64,000 nt of DNA from Sphingopyxis yananensis (lineage in GTDB: Bacteria; Pseudomonadota; Alphaproteobacteria; Sphingomonadales; Sphingomonadaceae), in contig NZ_JAJEWI010000007.1 of assembly GCF_020687785.1 (NCBI RefSeq), positions 1 to 64,000 of the forward strand, in the 5' to 3' direction. Both the position numbers and the translations under genes were made by a program. The notes beneath the pieces were generated by a model. That model saw only the letters and a program-made list of their open reading frames with translations, ran no database searches and was not told the DNA's origin. Positions 50,072 to 63,625 of this stretch are shown here, piece by piece (the stretch's first letter is position 1; the number at the start of each line of letters is the position of its first letter).

Positions 50072-50350
50072 ATGATATCACAGCCGCATCTTCGCTTCTT
50101 ACGCCTCAACCAAATTCTCGATCTCACAGGGCTGAGCCGTGCCACCCTCTACCGAAAAATAGCCGCCGGCACCTTCCCGCCGCCGTATCGGATATCGGAG
50201 CGCTGTTCTGGCTGGCGAACCGGCGAAGTCGAGGTGTGGCTCCACAACCCCGTCTCCTTCACCATGGATTATCTTGACCGCACGGACATCGCCCCGCCCA
50301 TGACGCCCACGCTTACCAAACCCTATCGCCGGACCCAATTGCCGAACTAG
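50072..50350 (+). CDS. AlpA-family regulator/excisionase
   Basis: The 92-residue protein has RLNQILDLTGLSRATLYRKIAAGTFPPPYRI near 11-41, the helix-turn-helix of AlpA proteins, which control integrase genes and excision. It converges with integrase 2 and overlaps its 3' end by 38 bp. ATG at 50072 follows GGAGAGGTC. Together they form the excision module of the island. Confidence 0.85.
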   Translation: MISQPHLRFLRLNQILDLTGLSRATLYRKIAAGTFPPPYRISERCSGWRTGEVEVWLHNPVSFTMDYLDRTDIAPPMTPTLTKPYRRTQLPN

Positions 50351-51581
50351 CCGCAGCGCTTTGCCGGCGAGGAAAGCGGCCCCGCGCCGGAGCTCCGCCA
50401 GCCTGCAGCTCATCGAGCCGGTTCGACCAATATTCCATCATCTGAACCCGCTCGGCCCAATGTTCCCCGCGCACATAAGCACGGCGAACATCATTATTCT
50501 CCAAATGTCCTAATTGGCGTTCGATCGCATCGGGATGCCATTTGCCGCATTCGTTGAGAATGGTCGCCGCCATCGCCCTAAAGCCATGGGCTGTCATTTC
50601 ATCCTTGGCATAGCCAAGGCGGCGCAGCGCGGCATTCAGCGTATTATCCGACATCGCTCGGTCCGCCGAGCGTACGCTGGGAAACAGCAGCTTGCCTGCC
50701 CCCGTCATAGCATCCAGCTCCTCGAACAAGGATAAGACTTGGTCGGTTAGAGGGACCTTGTGCGGGCGGCGCATTTTGGTGCGCTCCGCAGGTATCGCCC
50801 AAATGCCAATCTCAAAATCAAACTCCGACCAAGATGCCAGTCGCAGCTCACCAGGGCGCATAAACAAATGGGCGGATAGCAACAGAGCAATGCGCACGAT
50901 CTTACTGCCATCATAGCCGTCAATGGCCCGCAATAGGCCGCCCACCTTTGCGGGGTCCGTAATCGCCGCGCGGTGGGTCACCTTTGGTGTGATCAGCGCC
51001 CCGCGAAGATCGCCAGCGGGATCTCTGTCCGCGCGGCCCGTCGCAATCGCAAAGCGGAACAAGGAACTGAGCGTTCCTCTCAGTCGGTTGGCCGTCTCAT
51101 ATTTGCCGCAAGCCTCGATCTTTTGCAGGACCTCCAAAAGATCTGGCGCATGGATATCCCGCATCCGGCGCTTGCCGATAAACGGCCGGGCATGCTCCAT
51201 CAGCCATATATTCTTCCCGATGGTTGCCTCGGAGCGCCCCTGCATTCGCAGGCGGCGGATATATTCATCGGCCAGAACATCGAAGCAATCGCTCTCGACC
51301 GCTTGCAAAGCATTGGGCCGAACACGCCGCGTCGTAGAGGGGTCTTCTCCGTTTGCGACTAGCCTGCGGGCAGCGTCTCGCTTCGCGCGAGCATCGGCCA
51401 AGGTGACATCAGGATAAAGTCCAAGCGAGATGGTTCGGCGCTTGCCTTCGAATCTATAATCGAAGCGCCAACGCGGCGCGCCTTTCGGCACCACGACCAA
51501 ATATAGGCCTCGATCGTCCCAAAGTTTATAAGGTGCAGATTGCGGCTTGGCCTGAGCGACAGCTTTAGCGCTTAATTGCAT
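50313..51581 (-). CDS. Tyrosine integrase, DUF4102 type (island 2)
   Basis: The 422-residue protein has the DUF4102 domain (KLWDDRGLYLVV), and a catalytic domain with MRPGELRLASW, AHGFRAMAA and a final Tyr in RRAYVRGEHWAERVQMMEYW. ATG at 51581 follows AGGAGAG. It lies about 170 bp left of the tRNA-Thr 3' half at 51751-51796 and is related to integrase 1. The active-site residues look intact, so the catabolic island could still be mobile if excision partners exist. Confidence 0.93.
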   Translation of the reverse strand: MQLSAKAVAQAKPQSAPYKLWDDRGLYLVVVPKGAPRWRFDYRFEGKRRTISLGLYPDVTLADARAKRDAARRLVANGEDPSTTRRVRPNALQAVESDCFDVLADEYIRRLRMQGRSEATIGKNIWLMEHARPFIGKRRMRDIHAPDLLEVLQKIEACGKYETANRLRGTLSSLFRFAIATGRADRDPAGDLRGALITPKVTHRAAITDPAKVGGLLRAIDGYDGSKIVRIALLLSAHLFMRPGELRLASWSEFDFEIGIWAIPAERTKMRRPHKVPLTDQVLSLFEELDAMTGAGKLLFPSVRSADRAMSDNTLNAALRRLGYAKDEMTAHGFRAMAATILNECGKWHPDAIERQLGHLENNDVRRAYVRGEHWAERVQMMEYWSNRLDELQAGGAPARGRFPRRQSAAASSAIGSGDRVW

Positions 51582-51750
51582 GGCAAACTCTCCTGACGGT
51601 ATCTTTTGCGTTTTAGATACCGTCAACCATGCAAAAAAGGGGCTGAGATGCAAATCGACGCCCTGAGACGTCGCGAACCATTAAATGGCCTATTTACAAT
51701 ATTTTAGTGATTTTCAATGAGACCAGTTGAGATGTTCTGATGAGAACAAA

Positions 51751-53352: not shown

Positions 53353-54507
53353 TCAGATTGTCATTGCGTTCGCAGCACCGGCCTCGACCGCCGCCAGCAG
53401 GGTATCATCGGCAAGGTGGCTGTAACGCATGGTGGATTGGTAATCGGCATGTCCCAGCACCTTTCCTACGGCAAATAGGTTCACTCCCGCATTGATCATG
53501 AACGATGCCGCAGAGTGCCGGAGATCATGGATACGCAGCTTCGGTAGCCCCGCTTCCCTTCGCGCCACCTGCCAAGAATGCTTGATGTCGGTGAAGGGCA
53601 GCTTAGTAGCCGGATTGGGGAGAAGCCACGGGCAACCAGTGAGACGAGGAAGCCCATCGATGACGCCCAACGCTTGCTGCGACAAGGGCACATAGCGCGA
53701 CTTTGCCGTCTTGCTGTCTGGGATCAACCACTGGCGCCTTTCCTGATCGACATGCTCCCATTTGGCCGTCAGCAGCTCCATCTTGCGAGCACCCGTCAGC
53801 ACCAACAGTTTCGCAATCGCTTCAAGGCTGCGGTTCTGCGATCCAGCACAGGCACGGAACAGCTTCTCGGCCTGCAGCGGCGTCAGAAACGTCTCCTTTT
53901 TGTTATCGAAACGAAGCTTCTGCACTGCCCGGACAGGATTGGTTGTGACGCCCGCGACCTGCCATTTGATTGCAAGCTCAAACGATCGGTTCAGAGTGAC
54001 ACGGATCTTTTCCACCGTAGCCGGTGCAAGACCATCTTTGCGCTTGTCTGCCAGCCACTCACCAATCGCTTGCGGGGTCATTTCAGTGACACGTACCTTG
54101 GCCCATTTTGGCAGCAGGTGACATTTGATGATGCGATCGGTGTTTTCTGGCCGCTTCTGATAGGTCGAGTTGTGTTTGATGTGCATGACCGCAAGCTCAC
54201 CATAGGTTGGAATAGCCTTACGCTCAGCTTTCTCGGCCTTCGGATCACTGCCAAGCTGCGTTTCGGCCCATAGGCTCTGCGCCTTTTTGCGAGCTTCAGC
54301 ATTGGAGACGGCGTTATAGTCGCTGATCGTGGTTTGGGCCTGTTTGCCATATTGATCGCGGTAGCGGAACGCATAGGACTTTCCGCCACTGGCTCGGCAT
54401 TCCAAAATGAAGCCCTTGATGATCGTATCGTAGTAATCTGTCCGCTTCTTACCAGCCTCGACCGTAGCGGCCTGACAGAAGGCGTGATCCAGCTTTGCTT
54501 TAGGCAT
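53353..54507 (-). CDS. Tyrosine integrase (phage type, element 3)
   Basis: The 384-residue protein has an N-terminal DUF4102-like region (FILECRASGGKSYAFRYRDQYGKQ), a SAM-like core domain, and catalytic residues in LTGARKMELLTAKW (Arg), HDLRHSAAS (His-x2-Arg), LGHADYQSTMRYSHL (His and Tyr). The ATG at 54507 is chosen because the upstream extension lacks domain homology. It is different from integrases 1 and 2, so belongs to a separate element. Confidence 0.92.
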   Translation of the reverse strand: MPKAKLDHAFCQAATVEAGKKRTDYYDTIIKGFILECRASGGKSYAFRYRDQYGKQAQTTISDYNAVSNAEARKKAQSLWAETQLGSDPKAEKAERKAIPTYGELAVMHIKHNSTYQKRPENTDRIIKCHLLPKWAKVRVTEMTPQAIGEWLADKRKDGLAPATVEKIRVTLNRSFELAIKWQVAGVTTNPVRAVQKLRFDNKKETFLTPLQAEKLFRACAGSQNRSLEAIAKLLVLTGARKMELLTAKWEHVDQERRQWLIPDSKTAKSRYVPLSQQALGVIDGLPRLTGCPWLLPNPATKLPFTDIKHSWQVARREAGLPKLRIHDLRHSAASFMINAGVNLFAVGKVLGHADYQSTMRYSHLADDTLLAAVEAGAANAMTI

Positions 54508-54684
54508 AGTGGCATCCTTTCGATTTTGGGAAAATGAGGGGCCAGAGCGCACGCGGGGCCTCTGGGATGGGATGGTTAGCGCACCCGAGCGAGGCACCTC
54601 TGGAGGCCGCGCTGGGGCAAATTGGGCATATTCCGGCCCAGGGTGGGAGCGCCGAAATCGACGCCCCCAGCATTTCCGTTTCCG

Positions 54685-61448: not shown

Positions 61449-62372
61449 ATGGCCATTCCTGACTACCAGACCCTCATGCTTCCCGTTTTGAAGATTGCCG
61501 CAGAAGGAGAAACACGGGTCCCGCTGGTTGCAGAAATTATCGCTGATCAATTTTGCCTGTCAGACGAGGAACGCGAAGAGATGCTCCCAAGCGGGAAACA
61601 GCGTTTGCTGCATAATCGCGTTCACTGGGCAAAATTCTATATGTCGAAGGCTGGCCTCTTAAACAGCCCAAAGCGCGGGGTGTTCGAAGCTTCGCTTGAA
61701 GGCAAGGCGCTACTTTCCACGAAACCGGAACGCATCGATGTCGAAACGTTGAAGTCCTGCCCTCGGTTCGCCGAATTTTACGGGCAGACAGGTGCGGGTA
61801 AAGAGCCGGATCATGTTTCCGCTGCCAAGGCCGCCACAACGTCTGACGCGACACCGGAAGAGCAAATTGATGCCGCACAGGCCGTGCTAGCTGCTGCTTT
61901 AAAGGCCGACCTCCTGCAGCGAGTTTTGGAACAATCACCTGCCTTTTTTGAGCGGCTGATAGTCGACCTCTTAGTTGCAATGGGATATGGCGGTTCGCAC
62001 GACAATGCTGCTCGCCAATTGGGTAAGTCCGGTGACGGCGGCATAGATGGCATTATTGATGAAGATCGTCTGGGATTAGATCGAATTTATGTCCAGGCTA
62101 AACGATACGCCTCAACCGTGATCGGACGACCCGAAATTCAGGGCTTTGTCGGAAGCCTTGTGGGACTTGGTGCCAATAAAGGTGTTTTTGTCACCACATC
62201 CACTTTTAGTAAACAAGCTATCGACTACGCTAAAGCGCTACAGCAGAGAGTTATTTTGATTGATGGCGCAAAACTCAGTGAACTGATGATCGAATTCGGT
62301 GTTGGAGTGCGCTCCAGCCGAGTAATTGACGTGAAGCGGTTGGATGAAGACTTCTTTGCAGACGAGGCATGA
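61449..62372 (+). CDS. mrr: Mrr-family restriction endonuclease
   Basis: The 307-residue protein has an N-terminal Mrr_N winged-helix domain (about 1-95) and a C-terminal Mrr_cat domain. The nuclease core reads FFERLIVDLL (Glu168), GDGGIDG (Asp200) and YVQAKRY (Gln216, Lys218), the usual Mrr catalytic set. Mrr enzymes cleave methylated DNA. Its stop overlaps the ATG of the EEP nuclease (ATGA), so both are made together, suggesting joint defence action. Confidence 0.9.
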   Translation: MAIPDYQTLMLPVLKIAAEGETRVPLVAEIIADQFCLSDEEREEMLPSGKQRLLHNRVHWAKFYMSKAGLLNSPKRGVFEASLEGKALLSTKPERIDVETLKSCPRFAEFYGQTGAGKEPDHVSAAKAATTSDATPEEQIDAAQAVLAAALKADLLQRVLEQSPAFFERLIVDLLVAMGYGGSHDNAARQLGKSGDGGIDGIIDEDRLGLDRIYVQAKRYASTVIGRPEIQGFVGSLVGLGANKGVFVTTSTFSKQAIDYAKALQQRVILIDGAKLSELMIEFGVGVRSSRVIDVKRLDEDFFADEA

Positions 62373-63088
62373 GACTTGTCACGTGGAACTGCAACGGGGC
62401 ACTTCGGCGCAAACATGCGCTCCTCGAGGCACTTGATGCTGACATTCTAGTGATTCAAGAATGTGAAGACCCTTCACAATCAACCGCTGAATATCAGGCA
62501 TGGGCGAAAGATTACGCTTGGATCGGCTATGGCAAAAACAAAGGCATCGGAATTTTTCCGCGACGTGGCCAACGCATTGAACCGCTAGACTGGCCCGCTA
62601 GTGATTTAAAATTGTTCTTGCCCGTCAGAGTGGATGATAAATATGATGTTGTTGGTGTTTGGACCCAAAAAGGCTCCCCATCAAACACTTCCTATATCGG
62701 TCAGTTTTGGCATTACTTGCGAGCCCATGGAGAACGTTTCGGCCAGCATACCATTATTGCCGGTGATCTGAACAGCAACGCTATCTGGGACAAGCCACGC
62801 CGCTTATGGAATCATTCCGACTGTGTGCGAGAAATGGCAATGAACGGGTTTCATAGCTTATATCATCTGGCCCAATCTGAAGACCAAGGAATGGAGCGAC
62901 AGCCGACATTCTACCTGCACCGTTCAGAGCTAAAACCCTACCACATAGACTATATCTTCGCTCATGATGCACTGCTAAACGGTGTCCGACCCTCGGTAGA
63001 GGTCGGCAATCGGGCAAGCTGGATCGATGCTAGCGATCACATGCCCATAACGGTGGACCTACCAGATCTTAGGGTCAGGAATCATTGA
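62369..63088 (+). CDS. Endonuclease/exonuclease/phosphatase (EEP) family nuclease
   Basis: The 239-residue protein has N7 in LVTWNCNG, Glu31 in VIQECED, AGDLNSN at 131-137 with Asp133 and Asn135, HIDYIF at 192-197, and SDHMPI at 222-227 with Asp223-His224. These are all active-site residues of the EEP (exonuclease III/DNase I) fold. It is coupled to mrr. It may degrade the DNA cut by Mrr or act on nucleotides; the target is unknown. Confidence 0.85.
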   Translation: MRLVTWNCNGALRRKHALLEALDADILVIQECEDPSQSTAEYQAWAKDYAWIGYGKNKGIGIFPRRGQRIEPLDWPASDLKLFLPVRVDDKYDVVGVWTQKGSPSNTSYIGQFWHYLRAHGERFGQHTIIAGDLNSNAIWDKPRRLWNHSDCVREMAMNGFHSLYHLAQSEDQGMERQPTFYLHRSELKPYHIDYIFAHDALLNGVRPSVEVGNRASWIDASDHMPITVDLPDLRVRNH

Positions 63089-63127: not shown

Positions 63128-63625
63128 GACGACTTCTCACGCTATATCATTGCTTGGAAGCTGTGCACGACCATGAAGGCAGCGGACGTCACCGACACGC
63201 TTGATATGGCCCTTGCCGCGTCAGGCTGTGACAGTGCCACCGTTCTGCATAAGCCGAGGTTGCTGAGCGACAATGGGCCCAGCTATATTGCGGGGGAACT
63301 GGCCGACTATATCGAAGCGCAGAATATGAGCCATGTTCGCGGGGCCCCGATGCACCCACAGACACAGGGCAAAATCGAACGCTGGCATCAGACACTCAAG
63401 AACCGCATCCTGTTAGAAAATTACTTTCTGCCCGGTGACCTTGAGGCTCAGATCAAGGCGTTCATCGAGCACTACAACCATCAGCGCTACCATGAGAGCC
63501 TGAGCAATGTGACACCCGCCGATGCTTACTTTGGAAGGGCGCCCGCCATCATCAAGCAGCGTGAGAGGACCAAGCGACAGACCATCGATTATCGGCGCTT
63601 GCAACACCGCAAGATCGCCGCTTAA
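63128..63625 (+). pseudogene. IS3-family transposase OrfB, 5'-truncated
   Basis: The frame from about 63128 reads DDFSRYIIAWKLCTTMKA, then SDNGPSY, GAPMHPQTQGKIERWHQTLKNRI and FIEHYNHQRYHESL, the last part of the DDE integrase core. The Asp of SDNG and the Glu of GKIERW are kept, the first Asp region is cut. The upstream gene is missing, so the copy is dead. Its insertion lies 3' of the EEP gene. Confidence 0.88.

What the first reader, a model, noticed from the sequence alone, without database searches (positions are those of the whole stretch)
61449..63088. Coupled Mrr endonuclease and EEP nuclease, possible new defence pair
Both genes have complete active sites and overlap as ATGA. A methyl-directed endonuclease followed by an exonuclease-type enzyme is not a standard pair that I know, and it lies in a mobile region.
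Basis: partly seen in the sequence, partly recalled or inferred. Interest (0 to 1): 0.7.

Follow-up and report, generated by a model that had tools for sequence, protein, structure and literature searches.

The report
Restriction enzyme with optional nuclease partner
A bacterial enzyme of the type that cuts chemically marked foreign DNA sits in one operon with a second, uncharacterised nuclease-type enzyme; similar pairings have arisen several times, but the second enzyme usually lives elsewhere, so this looks like an optional helper and not a fixed two-part defence system.

Summary
An Mrr-type endonuclease (61449-62372) and an EEP-fold nuclease (62369-63088) overlap as ATGA, both with conserved active sites. 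The Mrr belongs to the known type IV family. The EEP belongs to a compact, uncharacterised subfamily found in several phyla (80 loci examined). In 70 of 80 loci it has neither of its two recurrent partners within the held flanks. Mrr lies there in 5 of 80, directly adjacent in 3 of 80. That is far above random placement (about 0.04 expected, 5 seen) but partly reflects defence-island clustering. The pairings differ in order and spacing and are scattered in both gene trees (at least 4 of 5 changes forced in each), so they were probably assembled or broken up repeatedly. A close relative of one paired Mrr lacks the EEP. The second partner is a GIY-YIG + DUF4357 protein (5 of 80), plausibly another modification-dependent endonuclease. 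Best reading: a free-standing mobile nuclease, optionally coupled to modification-dependent endonucleases and probably processing the DNA they cut. Defence, substrate and cooperation are untested.

The parts
61449..62372 (+). Mrr-type (type IV) restriction endonuclease, 307 aa: Mrr_N domain (residues 6-90) and Mrr_cat PD-QxK nuclease (161-280; D200, Q216, K218)
   Evidence: Pfam and PADLOC; residue conservation 42 of 42 rows
62369..63088 (+). EEP-fold nuclease, 239 aa, of an uncharacterised subfamily (putative catalytic set N7, E31, Y109, D133, N135, D194, D223, H224)
   Evidence: Pfam PF03372; conservation in 73 sequences; model pLDDT 94.4 and Foldseek. Roles of the residues are recalled from ExoIII/APE1, from no call.
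62369..62372 (+). ATGA start/stop overlap of the two genes
   Evidence: sequence
63173..63625 (+). C-terminal fragment of an IS3/IS481-type DDE transposase just downstream (context, not part of the pair)
   Evidence: NCBIfam NF033516 positions 255-367 of 369; Pfam rve_3
53353..54597 (-). tyrosine integrase (context)
   Evidence: Pfam
50313..51653 (-). tyrosine integrase (context)
   Evidence: Pfam

Best explanation
The window carries a type IV (modification-dependent) Mrr endonuclease whose operon has picked up a mobile, self-sufficient EEP nuclease as an optional helper. Mrr would bind modified incoming DNA and cut or nick it; the EEP enzyme, made from the same message, would then work on the broken DNA (3'-end trimming, gap widening or further nicking), so that the ends cannot simply be rejoined. 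Shown: the two genes, their overlap, intact conserved active sites, the EEP fold, side-by-side placement with Mrr and with a second kind of protein in scattered branches of the tree, and an Mrr close to a paired one that lacks the EEP. Inferred: translational coupling, that the two act on the same DNA, the order of action, modification dependence, and protection against phages or plasmids.
For: Direct same-strand neighbours with tight spacing in three other loci: L007 gap 7, L016 gap 32, L022 overlap 4 in reverse order; L014 has one gene between. Of 16 Mrr places in 15 of 78 EEP genomes, 5 lie on the EEP's contig, all within about 5 kb, against about 0.04 expected at random. Scattered pairing: 5 label changes, at least 4 forced, 0 of 200 bootstrap trees with one, on the EEP tree and likewise on the Mrr tree. 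Of neighbour families seen in three or more loci, the only other one directly adjacent in three or more loci outside a shared gene block is GIY-YIG + DUF4357 (PADLOC PDC-S14), spacing -1 to 54 nt in 5 of 80 loci, also scattered (4 changes). PMC11037411 (passages) notes GIY-YIG-RAMA proteins as possible type IV enzymes, and DUF4357 is also fused to GmrSD homologues (PMC4619093, passages). The closest folds include DNA-cutting enzymes (LINE-1 EN, XthA, APE1, NExo).
Against: 70 of 80 EEP loci have neither partner in the held flanks. The window EEP's closest kin L002, L003, L004 have no Mrr there (L009 is cut inside the EEP and says nothing about upstream), and L004's genome holds its Mrr on another contig. 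A separate sample, 8 EEP loci in 369 genomes, had neither partner. L131 has the Mrr without the EEP. The adjacency preference beyond island clustering is modest (p about 0.009 to 0.06 under rough nulls). Repeated loss from an old pair would also scatter the labels. Fold similarity cannot tell DNase from phosphatase, AP-endonuclease or other EEP roles.
Confidence: 0.45

Rival explanations
1. Independent cargo: the two genes are separate mobile or defence genes that ended up side by side in the same islands; the EEP does its own job and does not cooperate with Mrr.
For: No Mrr in the flanks of 75 of 80 EEP loci or in 63 of 78 EEP genomes; closest EEP relatives without Mrr; an Mrr locus 82% identical to L007's lacks the EEP; the EEP sits at different places of one gene block in Flavobacterium; the L016 pair lies in front of a type I system.
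Against: Repeated same-strand adjacency with spacing of -4 to 32 nt, and with a second protein kind, is tighter than loose island neighbourhood.
Confidence: 0.35
2. Host protection: the EEP is a 3'-end cleaning or AP-type repair nuclease that mends host DNA nicked by Mrr (or by other endonucleases), lowering self-damage.
For: Closest folds include repair enzymes XthA, APE1, NExo and TDP2; weak ExoIII match. Mrr can induce SOS in its own host (PMC12707154, passages).
Against: The genome already has four other PF03372 genes; ExoIII cut-off far from met (28.3 against 99.05 bits); Mrr is common without this EEP nearby (27 of 27 other genomes).
Confidence: 0.14
3. Obligate new two-gene defence system.
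For: ATGA overlap and recurrence.
Against: Pair not conserved: 3 of 80 EEP loci directly adjacent; 0 of 27 other Mrr genomes; order reverses in L022.
Confidence: 0.06

Closest known systems
Mrr-family type IV restriction endonuclease (EcoKMrr; PADLOC mREase_IV)
   Same: Mrr_N plus Mrr_cat with PD-QxK site, full length, 6e-104 to the PADLOC model
   Different: Followed by an EEP gene; specificity unknown. PMC12707154 (passages) describes EcoKMrr as winged helix + PD-QxK with no in vitro activity described.
Exonuclease III / AP endonuclease group of the EEP superfamily (XthA, APE1, NExo), with LINE-1 EN and TDP2
   Same: Fold (Foldseek prob 1.00, TM to query 0.59-0.73 in the 50 rows shown) and catalytic residue pattern
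   Different: 15-20% identity in those rows; fails the ExoIII equivalog cut-off; own near-invariant motifs QECExP, GDxNSNxxWD and SxYH
GIY-YIG + DUF4357 protein (PADLOC PDC-S14), the EEP's other partner
   Same: Same EEP subfamily, same tight placement
   Different: Unrelated to Mrr by family; GIY-YIG match weak (best 7.4e-5, first member 0.014 and under the cut-off) and not confirmed by fold search
CMoRE (PD-T4-3), GIY-YIG type IV enzyme (PMC12923530; abstract, outline and passages seen)
   Same: GIY-YIG nuclease with a C-terminal modification reader, conceptually like the S14 partner
   Different: The S14 profile found no GIY-YIG chain in the PDB copy (I did not check whether CMoRE is in that copy); no EEP partner in the passages seen

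Membership tests
Mrr type IV restriction endonuclease | Mrr_N + Mrr_cat domain architecture | tested here: met
   94.2 bits (cut-off 29.5) and 121.9 bits (cut-off 21)
Mrr type IV restriction endonuclease | PD-QxK catalytic residues | tested here: met
   D200, Q216, K218 in 42 of 42 rows
Mrr type IV restriction endonuclease | cleavage depends on DNA modification | not testable with these tools
   needs experiment; family inference only
Mrr type IV restriction endonuclease | no cognate methyltransferase beside it | tested here: inconclusive
   the matches of two methyltransferase families in the genome lie on contigs C5 and C3, not C10; other methyltransferase families were not sought
EEP (Exo_endo_phos) superfamily | full-length PF03372 match over cut-off | tested here: met
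   52.5 bits against 24.5
EEP (Exo_endo_phos) superfamily | conserved catalytic set and EEP fold | tested here: met
   each residue in at least 70 of 73 rows
Exonuclease III (XthA) | NCBIfam equivalog cut-off | tested here: not met
   28.3 bits against 99.05 (TIGR00633)
Two-gene Mrr-EEP defence system | conserved co-occurrence of both genes | tested here: not met
   3 of 80 EEP loci directly adjacent, 5 of 80 within held flanks; 0 of 27 other Mrr genomes
Two-gene Mrr-EEP defence system | protection against phage or plasmid | not testable with these tools
   needs experiment

The most novel reading that the evidence does not exclude
This EEP subfamily is a general, swappable accessory nuclease for modification-dependent (type IV) endonucleases of unrelated folds: Mrr (PD-QxK) in some loci, GIY-YIG-DUF4357 in others. 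It would be a second-step enzyme that turns a type IV cut into irreversible loss of the invading DNA, and where unlinked it would serve other nucleases in trans.
Probability: 0.25. Interest if true: 0.65.

Novelty: new variant of a known kind. Interest (0 to 1): 0.4.

Why it matters
Single-gene type IV enzymes such as Mrr are usually described as acting alone (my knowledge of the field). A nuclease that repeatedly joins two unrelated kinds of modification-dependent endonuclease would point to a neglected second step in destroying modified phage or plasmid DNA, and there is a natural comparison: closely related Mrr genes (82% DNA identity) with (L007) and without (L131) the EEP. If cooperation is not found, the EEP subfamily is still a widespread, uncharacterised mobile nuclease with no match in the defence library searched.

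Tried and rejected
Plasmid spread of the pair: EEP in 7 plasmid records, Mrr in 62; none of the 7 is among the 60 Mrr records listed (2 not shown). Conservation within the family: EEP in 1 of 199 genomes, the window's own.

Single origin with no later loss was rejected by the trees: 0 of 200 bootstrap trees with one change for either gene. My first count on the EEP tree (three changes) compared the Mrr-linked rows only with the five S14-linked rows; one search repeats it against all rows and gives five. Label shuffles show no clustering for Mrr-linked rows (500 of 500 as low on both trees) and slight clustering for S14 (42 of 500). Repeated loss is not excluded. Eight of 80 EEP loci with broken or odd-length frames were left out of the EEP tree; the Mrr tree left out duplicates, short matches and frames with stops.

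Defence-island test: 84 same-strand neighbours of EEP (at least 90 aa, gap under 260) of 86 found in 76 loci; the two longest, from L023 and L030, were left out, and L023's was later scanned without a hit. They were compared with 72 control neighbours from 20 regions of 7 genomes. mREase_IV 3 and PDC-S14 5 of 84 against 0 of 72 (Fisher p 0.008). At 1e-5 the EEP set touched 42 PADLOC families, the control 13 (one member each). The families tested were chosen after seeing the data, and the control genomes are of the window's phylum and come from the Mrr hit list, so this is only indicative. Ten large neighbours scanned one by one gave two with hits.

S14 structure: model poor (mean pLDDT 75.4) and Foldseek found no match at E below 0.001; the GIY-YIG name rests on motif and weak Pfam matches (5 of 5 members at E up to 5). 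PDB sequence search with the single proteins gave nothing. Promoter and terminator scans were uninformative. Flanks were shorter than 5 kb in many loci, so counts of absence are upper bounds.

Print: the listings seen (titles, starts of abstracts, term counts) show no paper on an Mrr-EEP pair; the EEP terms had zero occurrences in the papers listed. The library is open-access, and the usual family name with slashes cannot be searched, so this is weak.

Full report
OBSERVATION. The first has the full Mrr_N plus Mrr_cat architecture and matches PADLOC's type IV model at 6e-104. The second matches Exo_endo_phos over its whole length and has no PADLOC match. GC of the two genes, 51.5% and 49.4%, is slightly below the window's 54.0%. 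The surroundings look mobile: two tyrosine integrases about 7 and 10 kb upstream, a truncated transposase directly downstream, on a contig of 68,377 bases.

THE Mrr. The Mrr sequences aligned here (42 rows, 41 different; duplicates, short matches and frames with stops left out) keep D196, D200, Q216, A217 and K218 without exception. It is a regular member of a known family. In a sample of 398 genomes of the phylum, 28 carry such a gene and 5 carry the EEP; both are found in the window's genome and in G211, where they lie on different contigs and the EEP match is partial. In three loci seen, such an Mrr stands beside type I genes: HsdR, HsdM, HsdS, Mrr on an Acetobacter plasmid; a relative matching in two pieces after a methylase and a specificity subunit on a Zymomonas plasmid; and L016. 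The function in vivo is inferred: EcoKMrr is described as a winged helix fused to a PD-QxK nuclease, with sensitivity conferred by both 6mA and 5mC (PMC12707154, passages). Zymomonas mrr (ZMO0028, not compared here) had a reported effect on uptake of one vector and none on others (PMC8432527, passages).

THE EEP. A scan of 84,980 species genomes confirmed 117 relatives and kept the best 80, from Pseudomonadota, Bacteroidota, Cyanobacteriota, Bacillota and others. In 73 aligned sequences (window plus 72 of 80 loci) the residues matching the ExoIII catalytic set (recalled: N7, E31, Y109, D133, N135, D194, D223, H224) are each present in at least 70, together with motifs of the subfamily's own (QECExP, GDxNSNxxWD, SxYH). 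The model has mean pLDDT 94.4, and the PDB matches shown are LINE-1 endonuclease, XthA, APE1, NExo, TDP2 and kin with TM 0.59-0.73 to the query. A profile search of PDB sequences agrees. It is not ExoIII by the curated cut-off (28.3 against 99.05 bits). The window's genome has four further PF03372 genes. The substrate cannot be read from this.

IS THE PAIR CONSERVED? Mostly not. Mrr lies in the held flanks of 5 of 80 EEP loci: directly upstream in L007 and L016, directly downstream in L022, one gene away in L014, and about 4 kb away in L012. In the 78 EEP genomes that could be searched (L080 not held; L020 and L038 share one genome), 15 have an Mrr at E up to 1e-25, 16 places in all; 5 places lie on the EEP's own contig and near it, 11 on other contigs. 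Random placement would give about 0.04 near ones, so linkage is real, but islands alone could give much of it. Three of the five are directly adjacent and codirectional, p 0.009 if one expects 10% and 0.058 if one expects 20%. From the Mrr side, 27 of 27 other genomes in the phylum sample have no EEP of this subfamily in the up to 1.5 kb held on each side.

SCATTERED PAIRING. Counted against all other rows, the Mrr-linked genes need five label changes on the EEP tree and five on the Mrr tree, at least four forced by supported branches in each, and no bootstrap tree of 200 has a single change. The window EEP groups with Novosphingobium genes that have no Mrr in their flanks. L007 and L131 share an 82% identical Mrr (929 bases) and an 85% identical 677-base stretch farther on, which in L131 runs into an ArdC gene. 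Between these two blocks L007 has about 1.75 kb with the EEP and a reverse-strand HNH gene, L131 about 40 bases. So the EEP is optional behind this Mrr; gain and loss cannot be told apart.

A SECOND PARTNER. Clustering all neighbours of at least 80 aa gave one other family directly beside EEPs in three or more loci outside a shared gene block: a protein of about 280-300 aa in five of 80 loci, spacing -1 to 54 nt, scattered on the EEP tree (four changes, all forced). A short protein in four related clostridial loci and a Flavobacterium gene block also recur, among close relatives only. The five match PADLOC PDC-S14, DUF4357 in 5 of 5 and GIY-YIG in 5 of 5 (weakly, best 7.4e-5), with a sub-threshold RAMA match in 3 of 5. 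The predicted structure was too poor to confirm the fold. The literature notes GIY-YIG-RAMA fusions as possible type IV enzymes, while saying that RAMA's preference for methylated adenine could not be confirmed (PMC11037411, passages), and places DUF4357 in GmrSD homologues (PMC4619093, passages). If right, both recurrent partners are modification-dependent endonucleases of unrelated folds. This is the most interesting lead, and it is inference.

MECHANISM. The best-supported reading is a type IV endonuclease with an optional second nuclease that acts on cut or nicked DNA. Genes and fold are shown; joint action is inferred. The closest rival, unrelated cargo in the same islands, is nearly as likely. 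Host-protective repair is possible. An obligate new two-gene system is unlikely, because the pair is not conserved.

VERDICT. Observation confirmed, interpretation partly supported, new variant of a known kind, interest 0.4.

Noticed in passing
L015:4104-4946, L029:4073-4978, L039:5706-6566, L044:5702-6580, L053:5702-6580: GIY-YIG + DUF4357 (PDC-S14) proteins tightly placed beside the same EEP subfamily, before it in two loci and after it in three.
   Followed up: partly
L007:4591-6338 against L131:5718-5758: An EEP gene plus a reverse-strand HNH_2 gene are present in one and absent in the other between the same Mrr gene and the same downstream stretch.
   Followed up: partly
L031, L045, L056, L059: In Flavobacterium the EEP sits at two different places within one conserved gene block, as if inserted twice in a hotspot.
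   Followed up: no
L010:4246-5699: Two different EEP-fold genes directly adjacent on the same strand.
   Followed up: no
L122, L192, L016: Mrr genes of this kind next to type I restriction genes (HsdR-M-S-Mrr on an Acetobacter plasmid; a relative in two pieces after a specificity subunit on a Zymomonas plasmid; Mrr-EEP-HsdM-HsdS-HsdR in Haliea).
   Followed up: no
L130:3992-7594 (63992-67594 of the window's contig, mostly beyond the window): A 1200-aa reverse-strand frame that looks by eye like an autotransporter.
   Followed up: no
G000:C1:979259-979609: A second Mrr_cat gene in the same genome, near a contig end.
   Followed up: no
window:54685-57267: An 860-aa reverse-strand protein with a RepB-primase N-terminal match beside an integrase, suggesting a satellite-like or integrative element upstream of the pair.
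   Followed up: no
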